A DNA stretch of 64,000 nucleotides from contig JASWJB010000105.1 of the NCBI GenBank assembly GCA_032433595.1, positions 1 to 64,000 of the forward strand. Direction: 5' to 3'. The notes beneath the pieces are model-generated. The model saw nothing but the letters and a program-made list of their open reading frames with translations. It made no database searches and was not told the origin of the DNA. The stretch is from Conoideocrella luteorostrata. Taxonomy: Eukaryota > Ascomycota > Sordariomycetes > Hypocreales > Clavicipitaceae. Position 1 is the first letter of the stretch, and every line of letters starts with the position of its first letter. Positions 23,635 through 43,710 of this stretch are shown here, piece by piece. Both the position numbers and the translations under genes were made by a program.

Positions 23635-26600
23635 TTACAATAGGTCATTTCTTTGCCATATTCGGTCAATATGTTGAGTATTGTTCGATCCCGAAGGGTC
23701 CTGTGACTTACCATGACAAACACCTTGCAGCCCTCTTTTCTTTGACTCTGATGTCTCGATTTCCTGCTCCGATGACTCGGTCGATCCATCGGATGTATTA
23801 CTCGCTGTTGAGGGCGATTTCTCATCTACACGAATCGCCAATACATCTGCAGACTGGAGACGATCGGCACTTCTATCATCATCCTGACTTATGACGAGAA
23901 ATTTCACTCCGAGGTTCCATGTCTTGCTGCATAACTCATACAAAGCTTGGATGAACTTAACCCTCAATAAACCTACATTTTCATCTAGTATGTTGAAAAG
24001 ACATACTATGTTGCTCGCACCCTCTTCTTCTGCGACACCAATGAGGGCTTCGTCGACAGGGAAGCGATATGTCTTTTCGAGAGCGTCAAGTCGCTCGAGA
24101 GCTTTATCAGAATGCCGTACAGGTTTCTGCTTGATGAATCGATGCAGAAAGCGGCGGAAATTATTAGAGTGTGGTACAGGTTTCCGCTGGATAGACCGAT
24201 GCAGAAGGCGGTGGAAATTATCAGCCACGTGTGTCTTGTTAGTCAAGTCGTTCCTGGAGAAAAAGTGATACATTGTTTCGGTTTCTGCCGTGTGACGGAA
24301 ATGGTTGATCAAGCATGTCGCTATGCTTGATTCTCCGTGACTGGCATTTGTAAGAACCCAAAGAATCCTTGATAACTTGCTTTCTTTCCACTCCTGGAAC
24401 CGCTCGTGAGAAATAACTCCATCGCTTGTCTTAAGGGGCGGATATGTATCTTGAATTATAGACCCTCCTTCACCAAAATCCTCTTTTATTAAGCGTGGTT
24501 TCATCGCGCAGGCCGTGTCGTAACTACTACGAGCTTTGTAACGGGGAGACTCGTTACCGGAAGGGCCCCGGTTTCTTATAGAAGCTGATCTGAGAGTGTT
24601 GAAGCGGCCAAAAGTCGAGCTAGCTCCAGTCTTCAGGATTTGGTCCTCCCCCTGATGCTGGAAATTCTTATGCGGGAAATTCGGAATCGGAAGGCATAGC
24701 AATTCGCCTATTTCAGCCTGGACGAGGTGCGTCTTGTAGAACTCGACCTCTCTTACTTCTCTACGGTCCTCATCAACCGCAACAAAGCTAGTCCAGCGGC
24801 TAGTAATGGAATACATAATCCCCAACCGCTCGGCGTTGCCCGCCACGCACTCCGCGATACTGCGTGACCAGACAGCTTCGCTTGCTTGTGCTTGAGCAGC
24901 TAACCCTTGAACAACGGCTTTCGTTGCAAGGTGCAAAATGGACGCTTTATCGGTCCAAGTCGACGTTACGTGGAGTTCGTGGATGAGGCGGGTCCCTGGT
25001 GTGACAGAACGTAGCGTCACCCGCTGTGGCGCGGGCCGGGTGCCTAGCTCCAGGAGGAAGAAGATGGATCGGTAGGTAAAAGGGTGCATCGCCGGGGCTG
25101 GGTACGGGGCTTGGATGTAGGGCACCGGCGGCTGCTGCCCCAACTCTTCTGCGTCGAGGTCCCTCAGCCGATAGACCTCCAGGCTCTTCCGCTCAAATCC
25201 TTGGCCGAGGTCAACTTCAAACTCCCAGCTAGGAGGCATAATTCCAGCTGTTAGCATCCGTTTCAACCGGTCACCCCATTGCGCATGGCGATTGATGTCA
25301 ATCACCTCGCCGTACCCGCCGCCAAACTCTCCGACGCGCTCGATCAGGCGGTGCGGAACCTGCGTGCCAATGCCGAGTGCAAAGAAGCGGATTTGCTCTC
25401 CGTACTCCTGGCGAGTCTTCCACACGAACTCTAGCACGTGGCTCTCCTCAACCTCGCCGTCTGTAATGATGATAATTTGCGTCGATGAACGGCCAGTCTG
25501 CCGGGAAGCGACCGCAGCCTCAACGGCAGCAAGCATTTCTGTGCCGCCCATATCCGCCTGCACATTATTTGCGTACTTGACCGCTGCTTGACGGTTTTTT
25601 TCTGTGTACGGTTGGGATCCTGTGTGCCATAGGAATCTGTGACCAGAGCCGAAGGATAAGATGTTAAAGGCGCAGGCGGTGGGAAGGCTGTTGAGTGATT
25701 CGCAGACGGCGTCTCGTAGAGTTGACATCTTAGTCCGAATGTATGTGTTAGGATAGTTCCATCCCATGGAATCGGACTGGTCTAGGACAAATATTATCTC
25801 GCCGTTGAACGTCTCGGATCCAGCGGCATCCTGGAAAAATTCACCAGGCTTTACGTTAACAAGCAAGGCAGCATGACCATGGATGTTGGTCGGTGAGAGT
25901 ACGGCCCTGGAACGAAGCGGGCGGTCGTGTGATGTCTCAAAGGCCACCGTGAAATCTTCTTCCATTGTGGTCGTGTGTGTAGTGTGCTTCACATGTATCT
26001 GTGTGTATTTGGCGGTATGTACTGGCTCGTCTTGTTCCGTAGCTGGGAACTCGAAGCTGTCCACGACCTCATCCTCAATGGGAACATTGAGGTTGACTCT
26101 AGAATTGTGGCTAGGTGTGACGCCATTGATGGACCCGTCGTTGTTGATTTTGATAAGAATATCAAGAGCATTTCTCTGTGGAGTAACAGATGCAGCACTA
26201 TTGACGTCGCAACCCCTACTTGCGGTCTCGCCATAACGTGGCGCAATTGATGTGGGAATAATGACTTCCAGCCCTTCTTTCCCTCCATTGAATAAAACAG
26301 CCTCGACTTCGTTTACATATTTGATCTCGATTTCGACCTCAGTCATGGGAGGGATTGTCCCAATCATCGTCTCAAAGATCTCGGGGGTGTGCTCCTCGAG
26401 CAGAGCAGCAGCCTGCTTCCGCTCTACGGCTGCCTTATAGGTTTCTCTTGCAGCCTCCCTACGTTCAACCTTGCCAACAAGCACCAAGTCGTCGCCAACG
26501 GAGCATTTGAAGTTCGTCACTGCTGCACCGTCGTAAAGGGGAAATGTGTAGCGCGCTTCGCGGATATCGTATTCAGACTTGTTGATGAGTCGCTGGGTCA

Positions 26601-26862
26601 GCTTGGTTGATGCGATGGTGCCGTCGACTGTAACTTCAACTGCAACTTTAAGCAACGGAAGATAGTGAATGGGTTGGATAGAGTCTCTTGGATGGGTTGG
26701 GGGATTAGGGCCACGATATCCGGGTTTGTTTGGGGAAGATAAGCTTCGCATATTGACAAGACTAGGTAATCCGTCATCATGTTTTGCCTCAATGTTCCCA
26801 ATGTCACTTTGCCTGTAACTGATCCCCGAAAGGACTCTCTCGGTGAGGATCTTTCGACTCAT
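23635..26862 (-). CDS. VIT and von Willebrand A domain protein with degenerate NACHT-like C-terminus
   Basis: 1,075 residues from the first ATG (26862). Residues about 65-200 are a VIT domain (TYKAAVERKQAAALLEEH and EIFETMIGTIPPMTEVEIEI). Residues about 355-520 are a VWA domain with an intact MIDAS: FVLDQSDSM, then GGTEML, then IIITDGEVEE. Residues about 824-1010 resemble the NTPase of fungal NLR proteins: a WKESKLSRILWVLTN lead-in, a P-loop position reading ASHGESS instead of GxGKS, a hydrophobic FNILDE at the Walker B place, and KFLVISQ like the following strand. The missing GK suggests it does not bind ATP normally. The 3' end is uncertain: a GTAAGT near 23711 could begin a further intron. 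The role is unknown; VIT-VWA proteins are usually scaffolds. Confidence 0.85.
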   Translation of the reverse strand: MSRKILTERVLSGISYRQSDIGNIEAKHDDGLPSLVNMRSLSSPNKPGYRGPNPPTHPRDSIQPIHYLPLLKVAVEVTVDGTIASTKLTQRLINKSEYDIREARYTFPLYDGAAVTNFKCSVGDDLVLVGKVERREAARETYKAAVERKQAAALLEEHTPEIFETMIGTIPPMTEVEIEIKYVNEVEAVLFNGGKEGLEVIIPTSIAPRYGETASRGCDVNSAASVTPQRNALDILIKINNDGSINGVTPSHNSRVNLNVPIEDEVVDSFEFPATEQDEPVHTAKYTQIHVKHTTHTTTMEEDFTVAFETSHDRPLRSRAVLSPTNIHGHAALLVNVKPGEFFQDAAGSETFNGEIIFVLDQSDSMGWNYPNTYIRTKMSTLRDAVCESLNSLPTACAFNILSFGSGHRFLWHTGSQPYTEKNRQAAVKYANNVQADMGGTEMLAAVEAAVASRQTGRSSTQIIIITDGEVEESHVLEFVWKTRQEYGEQIRFFALGIGTQVPHRLIERVGEFGGGYGEVIDINRHAQWGDRLKRMLTAGIMPPSWEFEVDLGQGFERKSLEVYRLRDLDAEELGQQPPVPYIQAPYPAPAMHPFTYRSIFFLLELGTRPAPQRVTLRSVTPGTRLIHELHVTSTWTDKASILHLATKAVVQGLAAQAQASEAVWSRSIAECVAGNAERLGIMYSITSRWTSFVAVDEDRREVREVEFYKTHLVQAEIGELLCLPIPNFPHKNFQHQGEDQILKTGASSTFGRFNTLRSASIRNRGPSGNESPRYKARSSYDTACAMKPRLIKEDFGEGGSIIQDTYPPLKTSDGVISHERFQEWKESKLSRILWVLTNASHGESSIATCLINHFRHTAETETMYHFFSRNDLTNKTHVADNFHRLLHRSIQRKPVPHSNNFRRFLHRFIKQKPVRHSDKALERLDALEKTYRFPVDEALIGVAEEEGASNIVCLFNILDENVGLLRVKFIQALYELCSKTWNLGVKFLVISQDDDRSADRLQSADVLAIRVDEKSPSTASNTSDGSTESSEQEIETSESKKRGLQGVCHGKSQDPSGSNNTQHIDRIWQRNDLL
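24117..24230. repeat. 57-bp in-frame tandem duplication inside the VIT-VWA gene
   Basis: GTACAGGTTT starts at 24117 and again at 24174, and the following bases match with about a dozen differences. It encodes two diverged copies of a 19-residue unit (NFHRLLHRSIQRKPVPHSN and NFRRFLHRFIKQKPVRHSD). Confidence 0.8.
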
Positions 26863-27251
26863 GCTCGTTACCTGTGTTGCTGTTCGGGATATCAAATAAT
26901 GTGTGCAGATAGCATTATTGACTTGGTACTACTCATGAGGTCCAAGGACTCGTCGTATGTTATGGTATGGTCTTGGAGGCATCTCTCGGAGTTTGTCCGA
27001 ATAAATTCGTGTTGAAAAGCCATGCCGTATTGCCATCAGTTTCGTCACACCGCATGTGTGCTATGATTGGACACAAACGCAGTAAGCTGCATAACTACCA
27101 GCTGAACCTCTTCTACTGATTGGTGGCCTCGTAAAATGCTCAAGATTTCATACCGAGCAGTGCCCCGCAACTGCAGGAAAACACTATTAGGTAGCCATGG
27201 CGGCTGACAAGCGATTAAGCACTCAGACACCTATGGCCGGTCTATCTGTGG
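26863..27251. promoter_or_regulatory. Shared upstream region of two divergent island genes
   Basis: 389 bases separate the ATG of the VIT-VWA gene (minus) from the ATG of the protease gene (plus). Both promoters must lie here or overlap, which allows co-regulation. No specific site is recognised. Confidence 0.5.
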
Positions 27252-30200
27252 ATGAAAAGTGTTCATGCAGCGGAAATTATGATGGAAAATTTGGTGCGGG
27301 AAACGTATGAGAAAGCCAGCTACACTGCAGAGTCTTCCGAGGCCCTCGCTGGCAAACTTGAAGATGAAATATGCTCACAAGTTGACCTGAGCCACTTGAG
27401 TGGACTCCTGGTAAATAGATTCGTCCGACCGCTTCGCTTCCTGATCGAATGGATCAAGGACCCAGATGTGATTCTTTCCGAGAATGAGTTAGAACGTCTC
27501 GGATTTATCGGGGAGACGATTGATAGCTGTGCAGACATCGCGGCGAGAATGGAGGCATTTCTAACCGCCGAGACGACTAAGAAGTCGGCCGTTGTTGATG
27601 TCTCGAACGACAAATTGCTCTTAACGAGACTCGAAGCGGATCTTTTGTCACAGAGTAACATTCTAAATCTAGCTCAGCATATTGCTGTTTGTCGCTTGTA
27701 TGTGTCCTTGTCTTATTTAGTCAATACAGGCAATAGTGCTAACGAGCTACGACGAAGGAACAAAACTAAGCCAGCAGCTACTGAGCAAACCTCTTTGATA
27801 CTGGGTAAGCTTGACGCGACTTGCAAATGGCTGTTAGACTCTGAAGTCTTCCCTGGTGAGAATGCATATTCGTCAAGTTCCAGGGCAACCTTTGAACTCG
27901 AAGAAGCAAAGCAAACACCTTCGAAAGGTACTTCGTACAAACTCATATGCGAGCACGCTGGGTTTCCGATTGTTCACCATAGGACCCTGGAAGTCAAGTT
28001 CCACTGCTATTGCACACACTATCGTCATGATGCTGAGTTGACATTTACGGGTAAGAGCGTGTTCCCAAACCATACGTCCACCACTTACATGTTATAGCAT
28101 CATCGGAAGGATGCATTCCGGTTGAAGAGCCCAGTCCTGGTTCTGATATGGTGTGGACCATGTTCCTGAAAAAGGAATCCGCGCAAGTTTCATTGCGTTT
28201 ATCGAACTTCTAAGGACAATCTCTAGGTAGGATATTTCTTCGGCTAGCAGGATAATAACTGATACATAAGCAGATTATATGTCACTGGCAAACTTTATCG
28301 AGAATATGCGATTTATTCATGCTCGTACGATTATGATAAATCCCGCGCTCGAAAATGCCCAGGCCGTCAGCGAAACTGTCAAGATATCTGCCGGCTCTCT
28401 ATCCGTCCTAAGAACTAAACTGTGAGATATCCCTCCTTGCTTAGTTTAGAGCGTTATTTACTGCCTAGAAAGCATCTCACTGTCATTAGGCACGTCCACG
28501 GCCCTCATGAAGTGGAGTTTAACTTTGGCAAACGACTTATAGTCCGCGAACCAAAGTACATCAAGATTCTTCATTATGCCACTGCTTCGAGAGCCAGCGT
28601 GCTCAGTCTAAGCCCTTCCCCTTCTGAGCCTATCTTCCAGGATGAATGCAATTTTTGGGTCTTTCTTAGCGATCGGTCTCCGGCATCGTGGGAGCCAGGC
28701 AATAAGCCACTTGAATCATACAGCATCCGAGGTACCGAAGCTGCCGTGTTGAATTATTACCAAGATATTCACGAAATATCGAACACTGACGTGTTTTGTT
28801 TGTAGTTCTTCCCGCCACTTGCGTTCATGAGCCGATAGCAACAGAGGTACTTCTGGACAATACTATTTGTGTCTATGAGCGGAAGCCGTCATCCCATATT
28901 GAGTCAAGTGTTTGTTTCAAGTTCTACAATAAGTCAGGTACGATACCCTTTGAGGCTCATGTCATTTAGTTGCCATACCATATATCAGGAGATTAACATG
29001 TGATGTGAAGATGCAAAATATTTCTACAGCAGAATACTTGAAATGAGAGAAAAGGTCTTCAATACATCTCTTCAGCGAGCGTTGTGGGGAGAAGAAATAC
29101 TCTATAAGCAGTACGGAAGTCTCCATATTTATCTGTCAGCCTTTCTAATCGTAAAACAGAGTTTCTGACTTTATAGCGCCTGAGTTCCACGGATCTGCTA
29201 GAGCTCGCTTCAGTCTTGTGCACATAGTGCATAGCAAGAACAACCATTACCGTCTGATTATGACGCGCGATAGGTCTCCTAGATCTCTCTGCTTTGACTG
29301 TCAGTCTATTTACTGGTCCTTATTGGCGGGGGAAAAGTTAACTTTTACCTAGTGGAATCAAGCATTTTCGATGACACTCTGAATATGACTCAGGTCCTTG
29401 AGAGTCAGCCCATCAGGACAGCCGACATATCTGATTCAGGAAAGATAGATGTTGCTCGACCAAGTTGGGGTGAGCTTGTTAGCATCCGAAGTACTGTACA
29501 AGCAGCTGCAAGATACGTCAGGGAGGGAGGGACTGCAGCACCGAGGTAAACAATTTTACTCATTGACTTGGGAAGCCAATTCAAATGGATGTTTCAGCTG
29601 AAACTGGATAGATCCGATCCATCTCTTGCAACTGAGCAGTGGCTAGAAGAGAATATCGATCAACTAAAACTAGTCATTAGAGCCAAATCGCCTCATGAGA
29701 CCGCAGGAAACCACAAACGCGTTAGAATTGCGATCATCGACACCGGTCTGGTCCCCGACCATGGTATGAAGGAGAAGGTGGTGTATCGAAATTTCGTGAC
29801 AAAAGAATATCAGACCGAGACGCGAAAATCAGTTCGCCATCCCACTACGGATCACAAAATGAACAGTGCATCTCAAGGTCTCCAAGACACCAGTCAAGGG
29901 CAACACGGCACTGTCTCAGCCGACATTATACTTCGTGTTTACGATTATGCCGAGCTGTATATTGCCAGAGTGTTTGAACGCAATAGTGCTTCAAAGGATA
30001 AAGAGCCGTTCTTCATGGCAGAGGTGAGCTTATTTGTCGGGGTGTTACTTATATGCCCCGTTCGACTTACTTACACTCTTAGGCTATCCACTGGGCTGTC
30101 AAGGAAAAAGTTGATATCATTAACATCTCCGCCGGATTTAAGGAATGTCCCGACGCTCTCCGTGAGGCTATTCATGCCGCTTACGCCTCGCATACGCTCA

Positions 30201-30673
30201 TCTTTGCCGCCGCTTCCAATTGGGGCAACATCGATCTGGTGGCTTACCCAGCTCGGATCCGCGATCAGGTCTTTTGCATCTTTGCAACAAATAGCCTCCA
30301 ACGTCTCGCAGAGTATAATCCGGAGCCCCGGAAACACGCCGATAACTTTGCTATCGTTGGCGATGGTATCCAGGTAGGTGGTCGTATCGGAGAAGGCACT
30401 TCGGCAGCCACGGCCGTAACGACGGGGCTTGCGGCGCTTATTTTGGACTTTGTGCGTCAGAACGATATCACGGACGGATCAACTGAAAGGAGATTGAAGA
30501 CGAAGGCTGGCATGACTGCTGTGTTCAGGCACTTGGTAATGGCTCAGGGATCATATGATTGCATTACGCCCAGAAAGTTACTGATGGGTCAAAGATATGA
30601 CAGACACAAGCGGGCGGAACTTAGAAATTGTGTGAAATCGGAGTTACTTAGGGCTTTGAGTAATATTGAATAA
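27252..30673 (+). CDS. Multi-exon protein ending in a subtilisin-like (S8) serine protease, HET-Q2-like
   Basis: Clear parts: exon 27252-28050 (266 codons, helical, intracellular, no signal peptide) and the protease exons 29568-30023 and 30083-30673, separated by intron 30024-30082. All four subtilase positions are present: Asp in IAIIDTGLV, His in GQHGTVSADI, the oxyanion Asn in FAAASNWGN, and Ser in GEGTSAATAV. Between 28050 and 29568 the exons are short. Plausible pieces are 28098 onward, 28492-28731 and 28805-28936, joined by GT-AG introns, but I could not find one open path through to 29568, so that part may have missed introns or be damaged. Its 3' neighbour, convergent and 60 bases away, is a gasdermin-like gene. 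In Cryphonectria the S8 protease HET-Q2 activates the gasdermin HET-Q1, which is the likely model. The N-terminal family is not identified. Confidence 0.75.
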
Positions 30674-30733
30674 GCAGGTTAGCTAGAGCGGTACGACAAG
30701 CACATTGAAGATTTGACATAGTTGGTGTCCTGC

Positions 30734-31631
30734 CTACTCATCGAGCTTCAAAATGACGACTTCGTCCAGCTCTTGGTCGACAACAATTGCGAAATTGATA
30801 AGCCCCTCTGCTTCTATAGTCGAATAGATATCAACCTCCTCCTTATTGTTAGCAAAAGTAGCCCGTTCAGTGTACGGTTTCATTGTCCAGTTCTTTGTCA
30901 ACACATGTCCAGAAATCTTATGAAGGCGAACAGCCCAAACAAAGTCAGACATGTCTGAGCCGTCCATCTTATGCGTATTGTGTCTGCTTAGAGTGACATC
31001 TTTCTTCAAGTTGGCGACCGGAGGGAGGCATCTTGGGCAAGTTAGCAGGCAGTTCAGGAGCCAAACTTGCGTGGAATCGAGAATGAGCTCACGCTATCGC
31101 CTTGCCATCAACCCCGCGACGTGCTTCCTCTGTCACTGTTCTCTTCCCTTTCCTTGCAACCTTGATTCCTGTAATCATGAACACGCTCCAAGTCAGCTTT
31201 CCACTCACATAGGCCGCGAGCTCAGCCCGCTCCAGGCTGTCCTCCACGTACGGCGCTGTCGGTTGCACAATGTATGTGTCCAGTCGCTCGTACTCCTCGC
31301 ATCCTTGAACAGACTGCTGGAACGCAACTTGAACGGTCGCCTTGAGAGTAGCTCCTGCGACTGCAGCAACGGGAGCGCCAGTTCCCGCGCCAGTGCCTGC
31401 TCGTCTCTCACGCGCCATGTCCCATTTAAAATTGGTTGCTTTTGTCGTGTACACGGGCATGCTGTTGGGGAAAGGCTCGATGGAGCCCCGGTTGAGCACG
31501 ACGTCCATGGTATTTAGCGATGCGATGAAGTGACCTAAGCTTATTGGCGCTGTCTCCGTACCGGTGCCCATGCTCTCGGGTGTGGGAGGCGGATAGTCTG
31601 CTTGCCGAAGCTTGAACCACACCTTCTCCAT
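30734..31631 (-). CDS. Gasdermin-like protein of the HET-Q1/RCD-1 group
   Basis: Exons 31631-31093 and 31031-30734 join in phase (GC+A) across a 61-base intron with a CTAAC near its end, giving 278 residues. It begins MEKVWFKLRQADY, has no signal peptide, and contains a Gly/Ala-rich stretch and then FMITGIKVARKGKR, followed after a loop by DFVWAVRLHKISG. This pairing of an 'I/V-TGIKVAR' strand with a 'DFVWAVRL' strand is, as I recall, characteristic of fungal gasdermin homologues that form membrane pores in incompatibility reactions. The last 40 or so residues are acidic and would be the inhibitory tail removed by a partner protease. The adjacent convergent S8 protease supports the call. The family assignment is by remembered motif pattern and context, without a search. 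Confidence 0.75.
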
Positions 31632-32284
31632 TTTGTATGTTCGCTAGGCTTTAGAATATACTGAATAAGAAATTTTTTGAAGAGTTTGACTATTGTAGCA
31701 TGGAATGGCGCTGTCAGGTCACAAGGCTGCTTCTAGCACTGCGTCTGACGTGTCGCAGTGACAACACATGCATGCTGCCGCACCTTGTGAAGGTCGGCGA
31801 AATGCAGGGAATTCCGGCCTTGGTAGAATTGCTTTATAATAGATATATATTTAATACAGTATTATATTTAGGAGGTTAAACTTCGAAATTCAAGATACGG
31901 GAATCCAGAAGGCTGGATTGTAGAGATGCTTCGAGAACGGTGGGAATGGTTGTGTCGGGGCTGAAAACCGATCGCTTATCAGGGACATTGATTAGGCAGC
32001 AATGCGACTCAGCCCACCGGAGCTGTGTACCTCTTTTCAGATCCAGCGACATTCTAGATCGATAAATTGCTTCACGCCTTGAGCGATATGATGCCCCCTT
32101 GTATTCAGTCGACTTGCCTTCATCATACCGGCGCCATCCAGTGCTCAATCAGACCAAGATATCGACGATATGGGTAAGATCCGGCCACCGCCTCGCGATC
32201 ATGATCCGACAAGCTTGTATCAGTCGTCGAAACTTCAAAAAACTGTCCATTTCAATCTGGACAGTGTGGATAACAAGTTACCAA
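31632..32284. other. Intergenic, gasdermin-like gene promoter side
   Basis: AT-rich near 31830-31875. A 90-codon minus-strand frame at 31876-32148 is not recognised. No other gene is seen. Confidence 0.45.
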
Positions 32285-33060
32285 ATGTCTCACGCCCTTG
32301 CGGTACGACGACTATACCATAGGCTGGATCTGCGCGTTGCACGAGGAAGTGGCGGCCGCTCGTGCCATGCTGGATGAGTTTCACGAGACTCTGAAAGCGC
32401 CAGAAAACGACACCAACACCTACATCTTGGGAAGCTTGAGCGAGCACAACGTTGTCATTGGGTGCTTACCGACGGCGCAATACGGCATGAATAGCGCGGC
32501 GGCCGTTGCGACCAACCTTATTCGAACCTTCCCATCCCAGTCACTCTTGACGAGAGTTTCTTCGATGCAAGCAAGCTATGATCTAGATCTTAGTAGAGTG
32601 CTGCTCATACTCTGAGAGAAGATGAAACGTTATGATGATTTTGTCGCCCAGATACACCAGATCGGCTAATCGAAGCCACTTACAAGCACGTGTCCCCCGA
32701 GACGAGTTGCGACGACTGCGACAAATGCGACAAATGCGACCATACCAAGAAAGTGCCTCGAAAAGAGCGCACCTCAGTCAATCCTATTATACATTATGGT
32801 GGTATTGCCTGCGGGAATCAAGTTATGAAAAATGGCATTGAGCGGGATAACATTGCACGAGGTTTAGATGTCAAATATTTCGAGATGGTGTCTGCAGGTC
32901 TCGTGGATGTTCTCAACTGTCACCCTATACGGGGAATAAGTGACTGCTCTGATTCCCATAAAAACAAGGAATGGCGGAAATATGCGGCAGGGAGTGCGGC
33001 TGCATATGCCAGGGAGCCGATTGGTACTCTAACCATACCCGTTAAGTCTGCCCAGAAGCC
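32285..33060 (+). pseudogene. Broken nucleoside-phosphorylase (PNP_UDP) domain from an NLR-type gene
   Basis: An ATG at 32285 reads MSHAL, then the frame shifts and continues as RYDDYTIGWICALHEEVAAA and TYILGSLSEHNVVIGCLP, the start of the phosphorylase-like domain that heads many fungal NACHT proteins. It stops making sense after TNLIRTFPSQSL. A second frame resumes at about 32648 with PDTPDRLIEATYKHVSPE and NPIIHYGGIACGNQVM through SDSHKNKEWRKYAAGSAAAY, the family's C-terminal block. The central part (the usual GIGGGVP region) is deleted, the pieces are in different frames, and no NACHT or repeat domain follows. A decayed recognition gene. Confidence 0.8.
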
Positions 33061-34912
33061 CTCCCGTGGGAGTGTCCCTGATGAAGCCAGTATATTAAGT
33101 ACTAGATATCGGGAATGTTCTGATCAGTGCTTCTCATGTTTTGAGTCTAGGTTTGGAGTCGCTTCGTGATCATCGGAGATCTCAAAAGACCAGGACCGTC
33201 TGTAAGGCACTCTCCCGTGCACGGGCTGTCTCAAGACCTTGGCCATATAGAGATGCAGGTGATCCGATTATCCACTCGCGTCTGAAGCAAAAGTTTCAAC
33301 AGTGTCATGTAGTGCCTGTGCTGGCGGCGTATTCTCGTCGAATAGTTCTACTCTGAAGCCCCTAAGATGGCTCGACAGACCTTCCTTCACCTGCTTCTTC
33401 ATTCCAGCGTCAAGCCCCCAAACCTCTGATAGTTTGGCGTTTATCACCTCAAGGTCATTACCAGCGGATTTGGTGTCTTGGTTGCCCAGAGAACGTAGAT
33501 GCAGCTCAGAGCCGTCGTCCAAATCCAGCTGGTGATCAAGCCATGAACCACCACCGAGTAGGCGGGCGATGATAACTATACTTGCAACGACTGGCTTGCC
33601 ACATGCCTTTGAAACCCATCGAGAAACCATTCCTGCTGGTTCCTGGATGTCAAATGAACCGGAAAGCACGGATCGGAGGAATAATATCGACAGACGGTCT
33701 GAAATTTCCACGAGTCGTCGTCGGCCACATAATATAATTAATGTCGTTCATTTTTTTTTTTTTTTTTTTTTGCTTCTCTAACGGAAGTTCCTAGCTGCTC
33801 TGTAGAGAAATAATATCTAATAGTGTTGTTGAAAAATAATAAAACATAAGCCTGGCGGCGAGGTTGCGATGAGCTCCAAGCTACCAAATGGCGCCATTCG
33901 CCACACCGAGGAGCCTAGAAGGCCAAGCATTCGGCAGAATGAGTTATTGCTTGCGCTATCGTACTTGTGGAAGCGTAGGATACGAAAAACCCACCTTACA
34001 ATCGCGTGCTACTACCACACCAAACTGCCAGTCAGCCGCTTGTCTTGTGGTCCGAAAAATTGTACACCCGCCGCCTCCATTTCGGAAGGCACAAGTACGT
34101 ATTTACACCTACACCCCTGGATTCTGAGGCCACACCACCTAGGGCAGTATCCTGACATGATCATTTACTCCGTATAGAAACGGCTTCTAGCGAGTGGGGC
34201 GGGGCTGGACTTGTAGGGCATTGACGACCGACGACCAACTTCAACTTGGCGGCTTCCGGGGGACAACAAGTCGCAATCCGATTCGTGATATTTGTGATAC
34301 TAGAGAATTTGTCACCGACTGTCCCGTCCTCGCATAGAGCAACTGCCAATGACAATGCAGTGATCTACGCAGTGCTTGAGCGGGGCTGTTGAGGGTGCCG
34401 AGAGACATTGGCTGATATTGTGATATCTCAACTTTTGCCTGCATATTCTTGAGACCAACTCTGGGGTTCTGTTGGCGCCCGACTGGGCGGTCAGGACGGT
34501 GGCTGGTCTTGCGGCGCCAGCGCAACGCCGCCGCAGAATATGTATCCGAGGAATTGCATATTCCGCGCTGACACGACGCGCGGTGGCTTAAAATTGTTTC
34601 CGCCAAGACGCATACCTGTGCGGTTGGCTACAAATCCCAGGCTAAATTGCTGCTGGTACGCTCAGCAGTGGCGCAATGGTTACTGCTGGGCTATCGCTGG
34701 GTTCTCGTTGCCACCAGACATGGGGTGTAATGTGACAGTCACCAACACATTGATCTAGCCTGTGCCCACGAATGCGGTGACAAATTTGAGCGTGTTATTT
34801 AGCTAGCAAGAATATGACAAAACTCCTATGACTTTACCCGGGCGTATATAATAAAACAAAAAAACTTTTGGAGTCCATGCGCATTGTATTCCAAACACAT
34901 GAGCCAGCCTAT
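33061..34912. other. Intergenic with unassigned frames
   Basis: A 147-codon minus-strand frame (33711-33268, GTG start, no ATG) reads like protein (around GMVSRWVSKACGKPVVAS) but matches nothing I know; it could be an exon or a relic. There is a 20-base T run near 33752-33771 and a TACTCCGTA motif at 34166-34174. The rest looks non-coding. Confidence 0.4.
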
Positions 34913-37260
34913 TTATGCTGCAACCTGTGGCTGTTGCTGTTGCTGTGGCTGCTCCAACTCAAGGTGGAACGAGCGAATAATTGAGTCGGTGTCGTCAATA
35001 GCCAGAGGGCGAATGTCGGCCATCTGCTTGATCTTCTGAGTACTGTTCGTGTGTCAGCCTTATATGAATGAAGATTAATGAGGGCCGCACAAAACATACA
35101 CCTGCTTGACTTGGTCATCGCTCATCGACAATCCGAGCTGTTCAACACGGCTCTTGATTGCGTTCCATCCCGTTAATCTGGAGGCGAAGTGGACGTATCG
35201 GCTCATGCCAAAGTCGGCAGGGTCAATGATCTCGTACGTGCTGGGCATGTTCAGAATAGCCTTAGCGTGGATGCCGGCCTTGTGGGTAAAAGCGCAGAAA
35301 CCGGTAATGGCTGTTTAGATAGTCAGCAAATAATGTCTTGAATAGTTGGTGCAGAGACGACGAACGGTTGTTGAAAGGCACATTGATCTCAGTCGCTGAG
35401 GCTACAAGATCCTCGATTTCCTTAAGCTTGTGCAGCTTGTAACGAGATGTGACGTAGTCGTGGCTGCCGACGATCATGCGGGCGAGGAGACCACCAAGGG
35501 GCTGCAACGGTTAGCTGATGGCCAAATACTACCTAGCATTTCCCACAGACAACAAACTCACTGTGATACCGTTTCGCTCACCAATACCCAAGACGGATGT
35601 GTCAATATCTGGTATCATATCAGTTAGTCATGTGATGGCCAACATTTGTTAGCTTGCAGTTGTCACTCACGAGTAGCTCCAGCCTCCAAAGCAGCATGAG
35701 CATTAGCGATAGCGCAGCCTGTATCATTGTGCTTCGAAACAGTTAGCAAATTTGAAGGTCAAGGTTGGGGTTAAACCCCCCAATAGAAAAGCAGTTTCAA
35801 TTGCAGAAAATCAGAAATTTCCAGAAGAATATCGTGGGACGTACGAAATGAGTCTCGATGTCACAAGAGACGACACCTCTCAAGGTTCGAACGAGATCCT
35901 GTTGTCAATGTTAGCCGAATTTTCTTCAATTTTTTTTTATTTTTTGGAGCCAGAATGATGACTCACGTAGACCTGTCTCGGGGTAGCACACCCTACTGTG
36001 TCTGCGACACCCACTCGATGAACGCCGACGGCATCAACCGCTTTGTAGAGCTGGAGGAGGTCTACCAAGTCCCTTTTTGATGCTGTAGTTAGCATCGCGA
36101 GTCTCAAAAAAAGAGGTGGTCACGTGACCTCAAATGAGTATAAGTGGGGGATTTGTGGGTCCAAGAAGTTAGGTGGGGCGAAGACAGAGGTAGGAATAGA
36201 GGGAGAATGGAAAGGAGAGGGGGTAAACTAACGATCTGAAGCTGTCTTCGCTGGAGAAACGTATTTCAAGTCCTTGGCTAAAAGCGCGGGTCGAGTTAGC
36301 TATGGCCATAACTGAACGGTCCAGGTCAGGTACCTCTTAACGTATGTTATGACCTCGATAGCGGTCTTGGTAATGTAGGCCATGTCCTTGCCGTGAGAGT
36401 GCTCCCGAAGCTGCTTGGACGTGCCAATAACAACATCCACGCCGTCTACACCAGTAGCGACCGCCAGCTTGGCATCTTCCATCTGTTAATTGCGTTTTAG
36501 TCATGGTCCTCATTACGTGGCATTGACTGCAAGCGGAAGTCTCAGTAGCTTACTGTGCATCGAACATCTATGGCGTAGCGTCAGCATCAATTCCATAGGA
36601 AACTGGAGTGTTCTGAATCAGAACTCAGGAGAACCACACGTACGGGTCAAAATCTTAGCTTTGAGGCCGAGCTTGCAGATAGCCTCGCAGTCCTTGCGCG
36701 ATTGTTCCTATGTTCTGTCAGTTGTTGTTCAACAGGATGAAACTGAAACGGGATACCGACCGAAGCAGCAGGAGATGTCAGTTCTATGTATTCAACGCCG
36801 AAATCCGAGAGAGCAGTAGCACTTGAAAAAAAAAGGATCCAATTAGTCTCGTTTTGTCTCTAGGGGATTGCTGGCACGATTGATCGCTGACTGCGCTTTA
36901 GCAACGTACATCTTGATCTTGGTCTCTGCGGGGCCGAAATCAGTCAGTTATCAGGTCTGGCAAAAACGTTCAAGGTGAAGAATCCGGCATTACCTGTGTC
37001 GAAGAATGCATTGGCAAATTGCTCTCCCTCTCTCAGAGTGCTTTCGATTCTAGGGTTACGGTCAATGACGCTGAATCTTTGCCAGACAATATGAAGGACG
37101 GATGAACAGGGAAAGCTAACATCTGAAATTTGTCCGTGTTAGAGAGAAAGTCACCGACGGACTGATAGGGAGAACCGGCATGGTGAGGCTTATTGGTTCG
37201 GCGAGGAGACAAGGGCGAGGTGTGGCCATTGGTGCCATTTTGAGGTGCGTCGCCGTTCAT
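34913..37260 (-). CDS. Homocitrate synthase
   Basis: Condenses acetyl-CoA with 2-oxoglutarate, the first step of lysine synthesis by the aminoadipate route. Fifteen exons join in phase: 37260-37121, 37049-36994, 36925-36910, 36821-36761, 36707-36644, 36567-36554, 36482-36334, 36277-36233, 36072-35967, 35898-35845, 35731-35671, 35608-35562, 35501-35366, 35310-35102, 35035-34913. The product is 426 residues. Motifs: [19 protein letters not shown] (metal-binding Arg/Glu start of the TIM barrel), THVRC from a 14-base exon, [29 protein letters not shown] (metal-binding HxN block) and [12 protein letters not shown]. The C-terminus is Gln-rich. Acidic/Asn-rich start, no mitochondrial presequence. 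The equivalent yeast genes are LYS20/LYS21. Confidence 0.95.
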
Positions 37261-40200
37261 TTTGGTGGCTTGTGGATGTATCTGTTCGTAGAATCGGATG
37301 AAGAGAAGATATGTTCGAGAAACACAAGTGCCGAATGCTCTTGGAAGGTGATTTAACAGTCGAGTAGAATACTGGAGTTGAAGAGGATGCTAAAGGTGAG
37401 AAGAACAAGTGCGGATGAAGCAAATTATTGTACTTTAGAGTGGCTCGTGGCAGTCTGCAGATGCGTCAAGTGGAGGCGGGGCAGAATTGCCAATTGAATG
37501 GCTCCGAATGACGGAGAGAAAGCGAAAAAAAAGTATGGTCCCTGTTAACCTCGTTAGCGGCAAGTGACGCAAGGTATCAGCTGTACGGTGCGAGGATATC
37601 ACAGTCAGACGTGGGTACAAGGCGGCTCCAAGCATGTGGCAGAGGGGGCGATGCCTCCACCAGTCCTGACGCGTATACAGTGTTTAATGGAACGGAGTAC
37701 CACGCGGCCACTGTTATGCGCAAGGTGTCCTCAGTCAAAAGCCACCGGGACGGCCACACCAAAAAAATCTGCGGCTAAAGCTAGCTGAAGCAGCTGAGAC
37801 TTGGGCGTAATAGTAGTCTAGGCTGGGCTTACGAGATTTGTACATGCGAGGTATCCTCCGTGCTCCGAACAAGGGAGTGACTAGCATGTGGAAGCAACCG
37901 CGGTTCCGGCCGCAACATTGACTGACAAAGACAGATACCTACCAATGTAAGTAATGTTTCTGCACGTCGCTAGCATCACCCCTCGACGGCCCATTGCGCT
38001 TCCGTAAGCTCATTGAGTGTGCATGTCATTCCAACCTCTTTGCGTGCAACGACCCCTCGACCGATGCTGGCGTTCTGAATAGCAATCGAGCGGGGGAGCG
38101 TCTCGTGGCATTGTTTGCGTCGTCACCAGCTAAGCGGGAGTATTCTGATACAAGACACGTTTGACTCAGCGCCGCAAATCGGCTCTGGAGCTTTGACTCA
38201 ACCATCACCCACCTAATCCTGCCCAGGGCTGCCGGGTATCCGTCGTGGTACGTGGTAATAACTTCCGTAGACTCTTGTCGACCTCCTGCAATTGAGGAAT
38301 TGAGGGGCAAGGTGGGGTTGGTGCAGGGCTTTTAGCCTCTGCGTTTGCTTCTGCGGGGCAGGCAATAATAAACAATTTGTGTCTCATCTTTTAGTTATGT
38401 CTACACCAAGTGACCAACTAATCCACCCACATTCGAATTGGGCAATGGCGACCGAATATCACCTATTGTATTGGACAGAAGGCGTCCAATTGTTCGTCAT
38501 CAAACAAGCCATAGAACACCTGGCAGTCCAGCTCTATTCCATCCTTGTCTGACTGAGGCAGTCTGGAACCTTGTCTCGACTGTAAAGAGACATGCAAACT
38601 CGTCGGCCAGAAGGACGGCACCTGAAGCTCTCTCCAGCTCGCTGTCTCCGCTGTCCCCGCTGTCCCGCCTGCACTGCGTACTATTAGCTAAGTCTTACTG
38701 TTTCTCGGACATTCGTAACTCGAGATGCCTGTTCAAGAAATAATGTTGTCGCCGGCACATGGCTTGTAGTGGCTGGCGAATGGAGTGGTCGGAGATGATG
38801 CGTCTTTTGCGGTGTGGGGGACCAAACGCCTTCTTCGAGCGGACAACAATTTAGCCATGGCTTCAATGCTGAGAGACATCACAATGGACTCCATATGGCG
38901 TATGTATTGTAGTCGCCATACGGACTACCGCGTATGGAGTTCCGAGACTTAGAACCACCCCCTAAGGTCGGTGATGATGGCAAAGCGGTTGCGGGGACCA
39001 CATCTAGTCAGCCTTGTCAGCGCTACAAATTTAGGTTCGCCGACAGGGGTGTGGCTTTCCGCTCTTTTGAAGTGCCGGCGATGATGGCTTCTGTTCCGTA
39101 CTTTGCATATCCTCTACTAGTATGATCTGGCTGGCATAACTGCCTGGTTGACCGGATCGGTATTGCCGGTAGGACGACGCTGCGGGAGGTAGTGGTCGTT
39201 GGCCTGCGTACAGCGGGTTGTCCGTGCGGCAATGCGGATTACGTTTTACTAGTACTCAATTGAAGTTAGGATCCAATTTCTAAACATAGTTTTCGGCAGC
39301 GATGAAGACAATACTGGGAATCAGAATCAGAGCAGGGAAAACTCACGATGACGAAGCACACATGCGCTAATAATGAGAGCGAACGTTGCAGCGTGGACGA
39401 CTGCTTGGTTACACAGTGTCTTCAGGTCTGCATGCCATTGCGGATGCTACCAATGCCACCGAGTTAGGATGCACCTGATGCGACTTTGATGCACTTGACG
39501 CACGAAACTATCACGCAAATAAGCGATTGCGTTCTACGTGCTCAACGCTTGACTAAGATAAGCTAGTAGTTCGTAGAGCAATGCTTAATTGTCACGCGTC
39601 CTCCAATGCAGTCTTCCGTGTGTCGTCTTGCTTTGGAACTATTGGATGAGAAACACAGGCAGGTTCCAAGACACCTAGCTGGTTAGGGTGGCGAAGGGAA
39701 GAAGCCGCCTCCGCCTCGAACAGTCCAGCAAGATTCGGTTGGCACTTTGCAGCCGCAAATCAAGGCCAACCACCTGCGGCCATTGCGCCAGATGCCGTTC
39801 TTGCATCCCATGATATGTCGGGTTTAACCTGACGGCTCGAACCACGAATGTAGCGCTATTAAAGTCGGATTCCGGGGCAGGCAGGAGGCCGGGAGGGCAG
39901 GCAGGCGAGGAGGGTAGGATCAACCGTCCTCTGCCGCAAATGCGCCGTGTCGCCATGCTGACGTGCTTGCGGCTGCATTTGATCACCTTTCAAGCGAGAT
40001 CTAGGCTGGACTTCGTCCAATATACGGAGTAGTACCCACCGGATTGCCACCCAAGGATTGCGCACCAACTGACTAACTAACGGGCTCCTTTCTTCGTACA
40101 CTACGGCTGCTTGCCTGCCACCAATCAGCGGTCGGCCAAAATATTTTGTATGCACACCTGCCACGTATTACCGCTACAGAAAATTGCGTTCAGCAAACCG

Positions 40201-41661
40201 AATAAGTGCAGCTCCTGCAAGACGGGCTGAGATAAACAACTCCAAAATCCAAGGAGGCAAACTTATGACCCTTTGAACGACCTGCGGAAGAGCTGCACAA
40301 TGCAATTCCTTCATCTACATCGAATCTCGGAAAGCGTGCTGAGATGGCTTGGCTTCCCTAAACCTGAAAATCCCCACGCATGGTGATTCGTTCGTAATAT
40401 ATCATTCTTCGTTGGTCATAGCTGCTGCTTCCTCGGATCTGACTGCAGAGAGCTGCGTTCCTTGAAGCATTGCGGAGTACGCAGGAGCTTTTTCGAATTT
40501 AGTTCTGAACAACGCAACCTGTCCCTGCTCTTTGCCTCACTTTGGTCTCATTCTCGGAGCGCCTTCGAGCTTAGGCCCGGAGTTCAATGGTAAGCTTCTC
40601 GCATGCATCGTTGCAACGCTGGGCGTATCGTCTTTGCCTGCCTCCTCGAGTACATACATGCGACCGGTACCTCCACACTCGTGTTGAGCCAAGGTCACTA
40701 AAGGCGGACATCAGATGGCGCTAGCCTCTGGTTGGCTATGCTATTCAAGACAGGTAATATGGTTCCTGTTATGCATGCAACTCGCATAAGCATCGGTCAA
40801 CTTCCGCGATTTAAACATAATTCTTAGACAGTTGTTTGACGAACTGCGTGGTCGACACAGTTGAGATGAACCATGGTCGCGCCAAAATCCCAGAGTGGCA
40901 ATGTGTTTCTCCGGCGACATTTCACACGCAGAAGCGATCGATTACCTGGATTACCACTTAGTCATACTCCGTACTGCAACCTATAATTTGAGTGAAAACT
41001 CTCCAGTCAATCGTTCGGGGCTTCGTACTGTTTACTGTGTTCAAAAGTGCGCTGCAGGAAATCATCGACTAAGCAGCCACAGGGAGATGCTGCCCGATCA
41101 CTGGCACCAGTGGCCTTTTCCTGCAACATTCAGAACCGCAAGTCCCATCCATCATGCCAGCCCATTAAAGATCTGCTCTACCGCCACACCACCGCCGCTT
41201 CTCCTTACCGTACCTGCAGGTCGTGACTACCGAACCTCCACAAGTCAACGGGCACAGGCTCCACCAGGCCAGAGTTTTCAATTATTACTAAGATGCTATT
41301 GTGTTGCATGACTTCTTGTCTTGGACGAGCAGTTGTGAATAAGCGCTCCGCTCGTTCTCTATCCTAGCTTATCTCTCAACCTTCTAATTCGGCATTAGAA
41401 GAACAAGATTTTTCTACGCCAAGGATGGCCTATTAACTATCCGAGACACGCATAATGTATTATGTGACATCCCGCATAACGTCCAAGGGTCCCGCACGGC
41501 AATGAGTTGTGGCGGTTTTGCCGTTCGTGTTAGTGCATCGGCCCAATCAAAACGGTCATCGCAGCCAAGAAGCCTTGTCATATTATAAGCTGTCAGAACC
41601 AGGCCTACAAGTGGGTAAGTAGGTGATTATTTTCGTTTACCAAGCCAGCACCTTTAGGCTC
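37261..41661. other. Gene-poor intergenic region
   Basis: About 4.4 kb with no frame that has a start, splice sites and family resemblance. It includes TACGGAGTA-type motifs at 40023-40031 and 40965-40973. Several 60-140 codon frames are judged chance. Confidence 0.45.
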
Positions 41662-42410
41662 TTATACACCACTACTATGAACTTCATCAATAATGAATTG
41701 CGTATTAGCCGTGACACTCTGCGTGACACTCTGCTGCTCGGCAAGATCTACCGTCCTTCTAAAAGGACATATACCTCCCTTTATGCTATAGATTGACTCG
41801 ACCCATATCAAGATCGAGTGGCTTCCAGAAGCGAAATCTGGGCTTAGACCCTGCAACGACTCCAGAACATCTCGCCACGAGTCGATATCGTTGTGCTTGA
41901 AAGGCAACTCCTGTGCCGGAGCGCTCACCTCAAGCCACAACACAGTGCTCGCATGTACTCGATCGCATTCGCGGAATGTGATAGCCTCCAAAACGCCGCG
42001 TTGGCATCAAATCCCGAATGAGCAATCCAAGCGGCATCGGCATTATGGGAGGCAGCTGTCTCTCGCTCGACTTCAAGCAGATATTCATAATTTTCATATT
42101 GTGTTCGCCATCCGGAAGCGCCAAGGTGGAAATCACCGTGGCCAAATAATTCTTGCTGAAAACCCCTCGCGAATGCGACCGGTGCGGTTCAATGAGGAGG
42201 AAGTCGCTGGTTGTGAGATCAAACACCGTGCCGTCCCGTAGCAACTCGAGGGTGCTGAGACCGGTTTCAAGTCGGGACCTATCGAGAGACTGCTCTAGGC
42301 TGCGGTAGAAGCTGACTCGTTCATCACTGAAGCAGCCCGTGAAATTTGTTGTTGAAACTATGCCTCGAAGAGTCGTTCGGAATACATTTCGAACAGAAGC
42401 ACAAATTTAA
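41662..42410 (-). pseudogene. Frameshifted unknown protein gene
   Basis: From about 42410 a minus-strand frame is open for about 160 codons (FRTTLRGIVSTTNFTGCFSD, then LLRDGTVFDLTTSDFLLIEP) down to PTRRFGG near 41995. A second frame then continues smoothly as EAITFRECDRVHASTVLWLE to a stop at 41662. Composition in both parts is protein-like and the switch point has no intron signals, so a single-frame gene with one frameshift is the simplest reading. No ATG opens it. The family is not recognised. Confidence 0.35.
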
Positions 42411-42949
42411 ATGATTCTGTCACTGTAATCATCACTAAATATAGTAACTCTTCGGCATTCATCGCACCTTTGTGTAGATTCCAAACTGTATTTTGCATGA
42501 CGCCATTGGAGCTGACTGGTGACACTATGACCATGTAGGATCGCGCACTAGGTGGCTGCCAACACCTAGTGTAGTTGGAGAAATTTGCTCCTTCTGTTCT
42601 ATTATTTTATCTTAGATATTATATTTTACACTGACTACGTATCATAGCATGCGATTCTTACGATCACGTTTCTTAGAGGTCATCCTGCTTGAGAACATCT
42701 GACTCTCCAAAAACTACCGCATTTGTCTAGACCAAGCAAGACTCCCCAGCCTGACAATACCACAAGTTTGTTTCGCAGGGGGGCCAGAAACCGTGCTCAT
42801 AACTGTATTAGGTAGTGCCTGTCATTGAAAATACACTTACTTACATAATAGATGCTCGCCAGAGGTGTTTGGATATGGCCTTGCAATTAAGGTTTACAAA
42901 AGACGCAGTATAAAAATTTACAGACACAGATCATCATATTCAAAGCTGA

Positions 42950-43710
42950 AGATGTTTCTAGGGTGTCACGTCATGGCTACAGCTTGACAACGAGAGGCAC
43001 TACAACGTCTCGGAGACAAGGGAACTAAGACTGGAGCTGGAAGTCACTGATATCGGAAGCATAAAGAAATCTAAAGACAGGTTTGAAGAGAAAACAGGAG
43101 GTAGACTGAACACTCTGGTCAATAATGCGTATGGCTAAGGCATGAACATTACACACTTACCATTGCAGCTTATGTACTACCCTCAAAACTAGCGGCCGTA
43201 CGCACGTCATCCCATGAACAGGTATCGACCTCAATGATGTGCGACACACTTATCAAACTAACCTTTTTGGTCCAATGTCAATGTGTTAGGCGTTCATGTA
43301 ACTTCTCATCCCGGCACGTAGCCTCATCGTCAACATCTCGTCCGTCTCATCGGTTGTGCCATTACTTTCTGGCGGTGTCTACTCTCCCACCAAGAGCGCC
43401 CCTGACAATATGCCCGCGTCTTCGCCTATAATTTGAGCTATTCAGTGCTCTGGCAATGAATCTTGTGACTGGAACTGTTCGTTCGAACATCGAATCACAT
43501 TCATGTCGTCAATTATCGAAGGATGGCCTATTCCAGCCTGTTAACGTCTCACTTTAGCCAGAAGAATGCTCCGATACAGACAGAGGATTATGCTATCAGA
43601 TCTGTGAGGCAGGTACTAAAGGAGAAGAATATCACAGCGGCTGGGTAGCTCCTACACGAAAATGATCCTGGGTGGGCGGTGTTTAGACGCCTGCATGGAC
43701 GGCAGACACC
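42950..43710 (+). pseudogene. Decayed short-chain dehydrogenase (AYR1-like)
   Basis: Pieces in order: LRLELEVTDIGSIKKSKDRF and GGRLNTLVNNAYG (the NNAG block), stop TAA at 43136; GIDLNDVRHTYQTNLFGPM, stops TAG at 43287 and TAA at 43299; then IVNISSVSSVVPLL and GGVYSPTKSA, the catalytic Ser and YxxxK; then, in a shifted frame, MNLVTGTVRSNIESHS and QKNAPIQTEDYAIRSV, the post-catalytic region, ending at TAG 43646. This order is that of classical SDRs, closest to 1-acyldihydroxyacetone-phosphate reductase. The glycine-rich start is missing. Several stops and at least two frame changes make it inactive. Confidence 0.8.

What the first reader, a model, noticed from the sequence alone, without database searches (positions are those of the whole stretch)
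27252..31631. Convergent subtilase and gasdermin-like pair: a candidate HET-Q1/HET-Q2-type cell-death module
The plus-strand gene ends in an S8 protease with Asp, His, Asn and Ser all present, and no signal peptide is seen at its start. Sixty bases beyond its stop, on the other strand, a two-exon gene encodes a 278-residue protein with the paired 'ITGIKVAR' and 'DFVWAVRL' strands I associate with fungal gasdermins. Established: in Cryphonectria parasitica the subtilisin-like HET-Q2 cleaves the gasdermin HET-Q1 and triggers death, and fungal gasdermin genes are often next to protease genes. Inference: this locus is the same kind of module.
Basis: partly seen in the sequence, partly recalled or inferred. 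Interest (0 to 1): 0.95.

Follow-up and report, generated by a model that had tools for sequence, protein, structure and literature searches.

The report
Fungal pore-protein and activating-protease gene pair
An insect-killing fungus carries, tail to tail, a gene for a gasdermin (a pore protein that kills the cell making it) and a gene for the kind of protease that is thought to switch such proteins on; this is a known kind of fungal self-destruct unit, but in this genome the protease reading frame contains a stop codon that needs explaining.

Summary
The 278-residue minus-strand protein (31631-30734, two exons) is identical to QQS21_005964 of Conoideocrella luteorostrata. It is a fungal gasdermin: E=5.5e-37 to solved RCD-1-1, profile match to the HET-Q1 pore (E=8.9e-9), predicted fold matching gasdermin pores of fungi, bacteria and animals. 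Sixty bases away, convergent, lies an S8 protease gene, modelled here with 11 exons, with Asp/His/Asn/Ser in place. Such pairs recur in three other fungi by consecutive locus tags and in this genome (6 of 7 gasdermin places lie within 1.5 kb of an S8 match).

Two corrections. HET-Q1/HET-Q2 is from Podospora anserina, not Cryphonectria, and there the genes are alternatives at one locus, not a cis pair. And the protease frame, modelled against its closest relative, holds one in-frame TAA at 28211-28213; the public gene model avoids it through a weak intron. The protease may be dead, made in a short form, or saved by splicing.

Verdict: new member of a known kind; activity untested.

The parts
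31093..31631 (-). Gasdermin exon 1 (residues 1 to about 180)
   Evidence: splicing; 100% identical protein QQS21_005964; RCD-1-1, E=5.5e-37
31032..31092 (-). Gasdermin intron, 61 nt, GT-AG
30734..31031 (-). Gasdermin exon 2 with stop codon (rest of second hairpin, DFVWAVRL strand, linker with F239, C-terminal tail)
   Evidence: conservation; predicted fold
30734..30862 (-). Part of exon 2 coding for residues 237-278: low-confidence linker 237-246 and short tail (helix, two strands) that is presumed to hold the protein inactive
   Evidence: pLDDT<50 at 237-246; H248-254, E260-265, E270-275; A237 37 of 38, T238 34 of 38, F239 31 of 38, E255 34 of 38, G256 37 of 38
27279..27697 (+). Protease exon 1, start of N-terminal region
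   Evidence: aligned to P0113
27758..28050 (+). Protease exon 2
28098..28226 (+). Protease exon 3, contains the in-frame stop
28211..28213 (+). In-frame TAA (codon 276 of the modelled frame); relative P0113 has a sense codon at this aligned place
28197..28273 (+). Weak intron (donor GTTTAT) by which the public gene model QQS21_005963 avoids the stop; drops ten codons
28274..28421 (+). Protease exon 4; in-frame ATG at 28279 just after the stop could start a short form
28490..28731 (+). Protease exon 5
28806..28937 (+). Protease exon 6 (5' boundary uncertain; missing from the public model)
29011..29110 (+). Protease exon 7 (missing from the public model)
29160..29299 (+). Protease exon 8
29353..29545 (+). 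Protease exon 9
29612..30023 (+). Protease exon 10, start of S8 domain with catalytic Asp and His
30083..30673 (+). Protease exon 11, rest of S8 domain with Asn and Ser, C-terminal region, stop codon
   Evidence: (PF00082 E=2.2e-10 on this exon)

Best explanation
A fungal gasdermin gene and a HET-Q2-like S8 protease gene lie convergently as a two-gene cell-death cluster in Conoideocrella luteorostrata. Shown: gasdermin family and predicted fold, intact gasdermin frame, S8 domain with its catalytic residues, recurrent pairing of the two gene types. Inferred from the published P. anserina and N. crassa work: the gasdermin rests with its short C-terminal tail shielding the pore domain; the protease, an intracellular sensor whose N-terminal part of about 630 residues receives an unknown cue, cuts in the conserved linker at or near F239; the freed domain oligomerises in the plasma membrane and kills the cell. 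In this strain the protease frame holds one in-frame stop, so the sensor arm may be silenced, made only as a short form, or preserved by splicing round the stop. The confidence given is for the kind of module, not for its working in this strain.
For: Gasdermin: phmmer to solved RCD-1-1 E=5.5e-37; profile of 38 of the 111 proteins matches RCD-1-1 at 1.4e-71 and HET-Q1 pores (9uv9) at 8.9e-9; Foldseek best hits are the RCD-1 pore (E=7.7e-18), later bacterial, Trichoplax and GSDMD pores. Linker and tail: low-confidence 237-246 followed by a small helix-strand-strand tail, F239 kept in 31 of 38; the literature puts HET-Q1 cleavage at F238 with loss of about 5 kDa. Protease: PF00082 E=7.9e-16; the solved relatives shown are subtilisin-family proteases (60 of 99 rows shown; 50 rows); triad and Asn present; no inhibitor-I9 match, no signal-like start. 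Pairing: consecutive locus tags and equal longest-contig length in Stagonosporopsis vannaccii (SVAN01_11865/11866), Fusarium euwallaceae (BHE90_010299/010298) and Pestalotiopsis sp. (KJ359_001919/001918), same longest-contig length in F. oxysporum (5,258,184); own genome 6 of 7 gasdermin places within 1.5 kb of an S8 match, where 0.7% of the genome lies; of the 14 loci matched by the protease, 10 have a gasdermin-profile match in the DNA scanned, against 0 of 6 other S8 loci, the six best-scoring.
Against: An in-frame TAA at 28211-28213. No expression, cleavage or death data. The gasdermin model has mean pLDDT 69.3 and the protease model (of P0113) only 53.6. HET-Q1 itself (9uv9) is matched only by profile and does not appear among the 50 Foldseek rows shown. 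4 of 14 loci had no gasdermin match in the fetched DNA, some of the 10 matches are weak (down to E=2.7e-5), and one gasdermin place (C71) has no S8 match on its contig.
Confidence: 0.87

Rival explanations
1. Decaying module: the protease is a pseudogene in this strain, the gasdermin is left without its activator (silent, or answering to another protease), much as a het-Q1-type haplotype carries the gasdermin without the protease.
For: One in-frame TAA in exon 3, at a place where the closest relative has a sense codon; the next recognisable gene on the gasdermin side is a frame-broken PNP-domain relic, so the neighbourhood does lose genes; the public model gets past the stop only with donor GTTTAT.
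Against: No other disruption in the 932 modelled codons and 354 of 642 residues identical to P0113 after the stop, so any loss looks recent; the bypass donor scores no worse than one other donor of my own model (-2.4 against -2.6 on a hand-made scale); shorter annotated relatives without the N-terminal part exist beside gasdermins (P0116, P0117).
Confidence: 0.35
2. The protease works as a short form started at the ATG at 28279, without the N-terminal helical region.
For: Annotated relatives P0116 (702 aa) and P0117 (625 aa), next to gasdermins by locus tag, and P0115 (561 aa, no adjacent gasdermin shown), begin at or shortly after the same aligned place.
Against: Those starts may be annotation errors; a protease freed of its sensor region beside an intact gasdermin might kill its own cell.
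Confidence: 0.15
3. RCD-1-like allorecognition: the gasdermin is set off by meeting a different allele in another strain, not by cleavage.
For: Closest solved relatives are the RCD-1 variants.
Against: RCD-1-1 and RCD-1-2 are 257 and 244 residues and their profile match ends at position 240 or before; this protein has a further conserved tail and a neighbouring protease.
Confidence: 0.07
4. Chance neighbours: an ordinary secreted subtilase next to an unrelated pore protein.
For: The genome has 88 S8 loci by exon-level matches.
Against: No signal-like start, no I9 match, long N-terminal part without Pfam match; pairing repeated in other species and loci.
Confidence: 0.02

Closest known systems
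HET-Q1 / HET-Q2 of Podospora anserina (Clave et al. 2022, not held; taken from PMC12881547 and PMC10197012)
   Same: Gasdermin with short C-terminal tail and a conserved Phe near the reported cut (F238 there, F239 here, parallel by position only); S8 serine protease
   Different: There the two genes are idiomorphs in different strains; here both lie in cis, and the protease frame carries a stop. Similarity to HET-Q1 is distant (profile E=8.9e-9)
RCD-1-1 / RCD-1-2 of Neurospora crassa (8JYZ, 8JYX, 8JYY)
   Same: Closest gasdermins of known structure, 33% identity in the Foldseek alignment to the pore
   Different: No counterpart of the tail in the profile match, which ends at position 240 or before; not controlled by cleavage but by the meeting of two alleles
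Q2L-type fungal gasdermin-protease two-gene clusters (about 80% of fGSDM genes; about 63% with S8 proteases, passages of PMC10197012)
   Same: Architecture and adjacency
   Different: The N-terminal part matches no Pfam family (P0113), unlike the ANK, TPR, WD40 and NLR types; but reviews say only about a third of the ~1500 Q2L proteins have a recognised architecture, so this is not unusual
Bacterial gasdermins encoded beside proteases
   Same: Pore fold (9a84, 8sl0); clustering with protease genes reported
   Different: No bacterial gasdermin appeared in the sequence searches of solved structures

Membership tests
Fungal gasdermin (RCD-1/HET-Q1 family) | Sequence homology to solved fungal gasdermins | tested here: met
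   8jyz_A E=5.5e-37; profile 1.4e-71 and 9uv9 HET-Q1 8.9e-9
Fungal gasdermin (RCD-1/HET-Q1 family) | Gasdermin pore-domain fold with two long beta hairpins | tested here: met
   AlphaFold2 model, pLDDT 69.3, with strands 61-87, 95-121, 147-181, 188-205; Foldseek 7.7e-18 to RCD-1 pore. A predicted model, not a solved structure
Fungal gasdermin (RCD-1/HET-Q1 family) | Short C-terminal tail after a linker, as in HET-Q1 | tested here: met
   its inhibitory role is inferred
Fungal gasdermin (RCD-1/HET-Q1 family) | Pore formation and cell death | not testable with these tools
   needs expression
HET-Q2-like (Q2L) gasdermin-protease two-gene cluster | Protease gene adjacent to the gasdermin gene | tested here: met
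   60-base gap, convergent
HET-Q2-like (Q2L) gasdermin-protease two-gene cluster | S8 domain with catalytic residues | tested here: met
HET-Q2-like (Q2L) gasdermin-protease two-gene cluster | Pairing conserved beyond this locus | tested here: met
HET-Q2-like (Q2L) gasdermin-protease two-gene cluster | Direct sequence similarity to HET-Q2 | not tested
   no HET-Q2 sequence was at hand; Clave et al. not held
HET-Q2-like (Q2L) gasdermin-protease two-gene cluster | Open protease frame giving a full-length product | tested here: inconclusive
   in-frame TAA 28211-28213; bypass splice possible but weak
HET-Q2-like (Q2L) gasdermin-protease two-gene cluster | Protease cleaves the gasdermin tail | not testable with these tools
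   conserved F239 in the linker is only suggestive
het-Q heterokaryon incompatibility locus | Gasdermin and protease are idiomorphs in different strains | tested here: not met
   both in cis in this genome; only one strain available
Secreted subtilase | Signal peptide and I9 propeptide | tested here: not met
   no I9 match; first 40 residues hydrophilic by a simple hydropathy measure, no signal-peptide program run

The most novel reading that the evidence does not exclude
The strain has been caught part-way between an intact cis gasdermin-protease pathway and a het-Q1-like haplotype: the gasdermin is intact while the long sensor-protease frame has just been cut, so strains with and without a working protease may coexist and the locus may act as a heterokaryon incompatibility locus in C. 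luteorostrata. The N-terminal part of about 630 residues, without Pfam match, would be a further, undescribed sensor type of this protease class.
Probability: 0.12. Interest if true: 0.6.

Novelty: new member of a known kind. Interest (0 to 1): 0.36.

Why it matters
It adds a clear gasdermin-protease pair, and up to nine more such pairs in the same genome by profile search, some of them weak matches, in an insect pathogen of interest for biological control. The interrupted protease next to an intact gasdermin offers a concrete case for the published idea that allorecognition loci arise when one arm of such a pathway is broken (pseudogenization model, passage of PMC10197012), testable by resequencing this one site in other isolates.

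Tried and rejected
Pfam (E up to 1) recognises neither the gasdermin nor the protease N-terminal part, so a negative Pfam result means little here. My first gene-finder run treated part of the exon with the catalytic Ser as an intron and was discarded; boundaries were then set by alignment to P0113, having wrong boundaries for four exons, corrected in 35. The first whole-length protease search gave 4 proteins, itself included; a search by the catalytic region gave 18, itself included. The protease structure model is too poor in residues 166-469 of P0113 to name the middle region; Foldseek on it showed only subtilisin-family proteases in the 50 rows listed. PF01048 gave no match in the window, yet 10 of 10 PNP loci, taken from its 50 rows, matched the relic at 32298-33058 by tblastn. 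Clave et al. 2022 is not held, so I rely on reviews. Not in print for Conoideocrella: one search, 0 papers, in an open-licence library only. Papers: PMC12881547 passages and sections 20 and 21 in full; PMC10197012 passages; PMC12352038 part 1 of 2 of the text; PMC10989679, PMC9262711, PMC10197892, PMC13304501 and the other papers search listing only.
Full report
What is there. The window comes from the genome of Conoideocrella luteorostrata, an insect-pathogenic fungus: the 278-residue minus-strand protein is identical over its whole length to QQS21_005964, and the plus-strand protease corresponds to QQS21_005963. The published draft of strain ARSEF 14590 is an Illumina assembly (51.6x, Pilon-polished, 864 scaffolds, 47.39 Mb) annotated with funannotate using protein alignments; no RNA data are mentioned in the part I read (PMC12352038, part 1 of 2). 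The genome held here has 620 contigs and 46.4 Mb; I did not reconcile the two. The gasdermin gene runs 31631 to 30734 on the minus strand with one 61-nt GT-AG intron. The protease stop codon ends at 30673, so 60 bases separate the two stop codons.

The small protein is a gasdermin. Its own sequence matches solved RCD-1-1 at E=5.5e-37. A profile from 38 of the 111 proteins found (I chose mostly full-length, varied ones; alignment) matches RCD-1-1 at 1.4e-71, RCD-1-2 at 4.5e-61 and the HET-Q1 pore entry 9uv9 at 8.9e-9. An AlphaFold2 model (mean pLDDT 69.3) shows long strands as in the pore state, then a low-confidence stretch 237-246 and a small helix-strand-strand tail. Foldseek ranks the RCD-1 pore first (E=7.7e-18), then RCD-1 crystal structures, then bacterial, Trichoplax and GSDMD pores; weaker matches to complement-type pores follow, and 9uv9 is not among the 50 rows shown. 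The linker residues A237, T238 and F239 are kept in 37, 34 and 31 of 38 relatives, and the tail has its own conserved positions such as E255 (34) and G256 (37). The review literature puts the HET-Q1 cut at F238 with loss of about 5 kDa (PMC12881547 section 20); the parallel with F239 is by position only, since HET-Q1 aligns here only up to profile position 217.

The large gene is an S8 protease. Guided by alignment to P0113 of Fusarium oxysporum, it reads as 11 exons and 932 codons, with Asp 29739-29741, His 29904-29906, Asn 30218-30220 and Ser 30401-30403. PF00082 is the only Pfam match of the public protein and of P0113 (E=7.9e-16 and 1.3e-17, starting at residues 567 and 634), without an I9 match; the solved relatives shown are subtilisins and other S8 proteases, and the start is not signal-like. 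The N-terminal part, about 630 residues in my model, thus has no Pfam match; the model of P0113 suggests five long helices in residues 2-166 but is weak there and unreliable over 166-469. In this genome the N-terminal part has no second match at phmmer-like sensitivity (the matches outside the window start at residue 537 or later, at the S8 end). I had no HET-Q2 sequence to compare; the HET-Q2-like label rests on the S8 type, the architecture and the pairing.

The frame holds one in-frame TAA at 28211-28213. P0113 has a sense codon at the aligned place; an intact copy therefore exists in a relative. Identity to P0113 is 122 of 274 aligned residues before the stop and 354 of 642 after it, and no other stop occurs in my model, which was itself fitted to P0113. 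The public model escapes the stop through a 77-nt intron with donor GTTTAT that drops ten codons, and it also leaves out exons 6 and 7, which align to P0113. On a hand-made splice score (weights from memory, not trained) this donor scores -2.4, against -2.6 to 4.3 for the ten introns of my model; so a bypass cannot be excluded. A short form from the ATG at 28279 is also possible, since annotated relatives P0115, P0116 and P0117 begin at or shortly after the same aligned place, though those may be annotation faults.

Is the pairing more than chance? In other fungi: the two nearest gasdermins after self (P0002, 65%; P0003, 58%) and the two nearest proteases by E-value (P0113, 59%; P0116, 56%) come from the same two species. 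Of the 17 non-self proteins, 10 are of species also named: 3 shown adjacent, 1 on a contig of the same length, 6 not shown (P0114 cannot be told; P0115, P0121, P0122, P0123 and P0128 lie on contigs of other lengths, possibly of other strains). In this genome: three protein searches gave 7 gasdermin-like places; 6 of 7 lie within 1.5 kb of an S8 match, where 0.7% of the genome lies (random placement P=8e-13; genes are not placed at random, so this is a rough guide). The seventh, C71, is weak, has no S8 match on its contig and lies near an ankyrin-repeat frame. A profile scan of 20 fetched loci and part of the window found a gasdermin match at 10 of the 14 loci that the protease matches (window included), none at C5, C492, C369 and C221, and none at six other S8 loci, the best-scoring (0 of 6). 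The four matches found only by profile (C171, C203, C23 near 55 kb, C88) lie 1.3-2.5 kb from the S8 match and range from E=9.5e-13 to 2.7e-5. By the coordinates, 6 of the 10 pairs are convergent, 2 tandem and 2 divergent.

How it most likely works. By analogy with P. anserina: a sensor protease receives a cue, cuts the gasdermin in the linker, the tail is lost, the domain forms membrane pores and the cell dies. Shown here: the anatomy and the pairing. Inferred: cue, cleavage, death. The reviews state that about 80% of fungal gasdermin genes sit beside protease genes, about 63% beside S8 proteases, and that only about a third of such proteases have a recognised domain architecture (PMC10197012 passages), so both this pair and its unannotated N-terminal part are of the commonest sort. 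It is not the het-Q incompatibility locus as defined: there the two genes are idiomorphs and in this strain both are in cis.

Judgement. The gasdermin-protease reading is secure in kind (0.87); whether the module works in this strain is open because of the stop. Known kind, new member; modest interest, raised a little by the interrupted protease beside an intact gasdermin.

Noticed in passing
32298-33058 (+): Frame-broken remains of a purine-nucleoside-phosphorylase-like domain of the type often found in fungal NLR proteins (that link is from memory): two halves in different frames, matched by 10 of 10 own-genome PF01048 loci tested (taken from 50 rows), 35-56% identity; PF01048 itself gave no match here.
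   Followed up: partly
23638-26928 (-): 1097-codon open frame with VIT and VWA domains followed by an NPHP3_N domain (a nucleotide-binding type known from NLR-like proteins, from memory), just upstream of the protease gene on the other strand.
   Followed up: no
30375-47149: Apart from the gasdermin's shorter exons, no open frame of 200 codons or more for about 17 kb, although G+C is ordinary (0.45-0.53); possibly many small exons, relics or non-coding DNA.
   Followed up: no
L018-L022, L024, L027, L029, L030 (G000 contigs C30, C23 twice, C269, C4, C291, C171, C203, C88): Nine further protease-like S8 loci with a gasdermin-profile match within about 2.5 kb, in convergent, tandem and divergent arrangements; the weakest match has E=2.7e-5.
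   Followed up: partly
L023 (G000:C71:126500-134500): Weak gasdermin-like frame without an S8 match on its contig but about 2 kb from a 510-codon ankyrin-repeat frame.
   Followed up: partly
public protein QQS21_005963 (P0112): The deposited gene model appears wrong against P0113: it lacks two exons (28806-28937, 29011-29110) and uses a doubtful intron at 28197-28273.
   Followed up: yes
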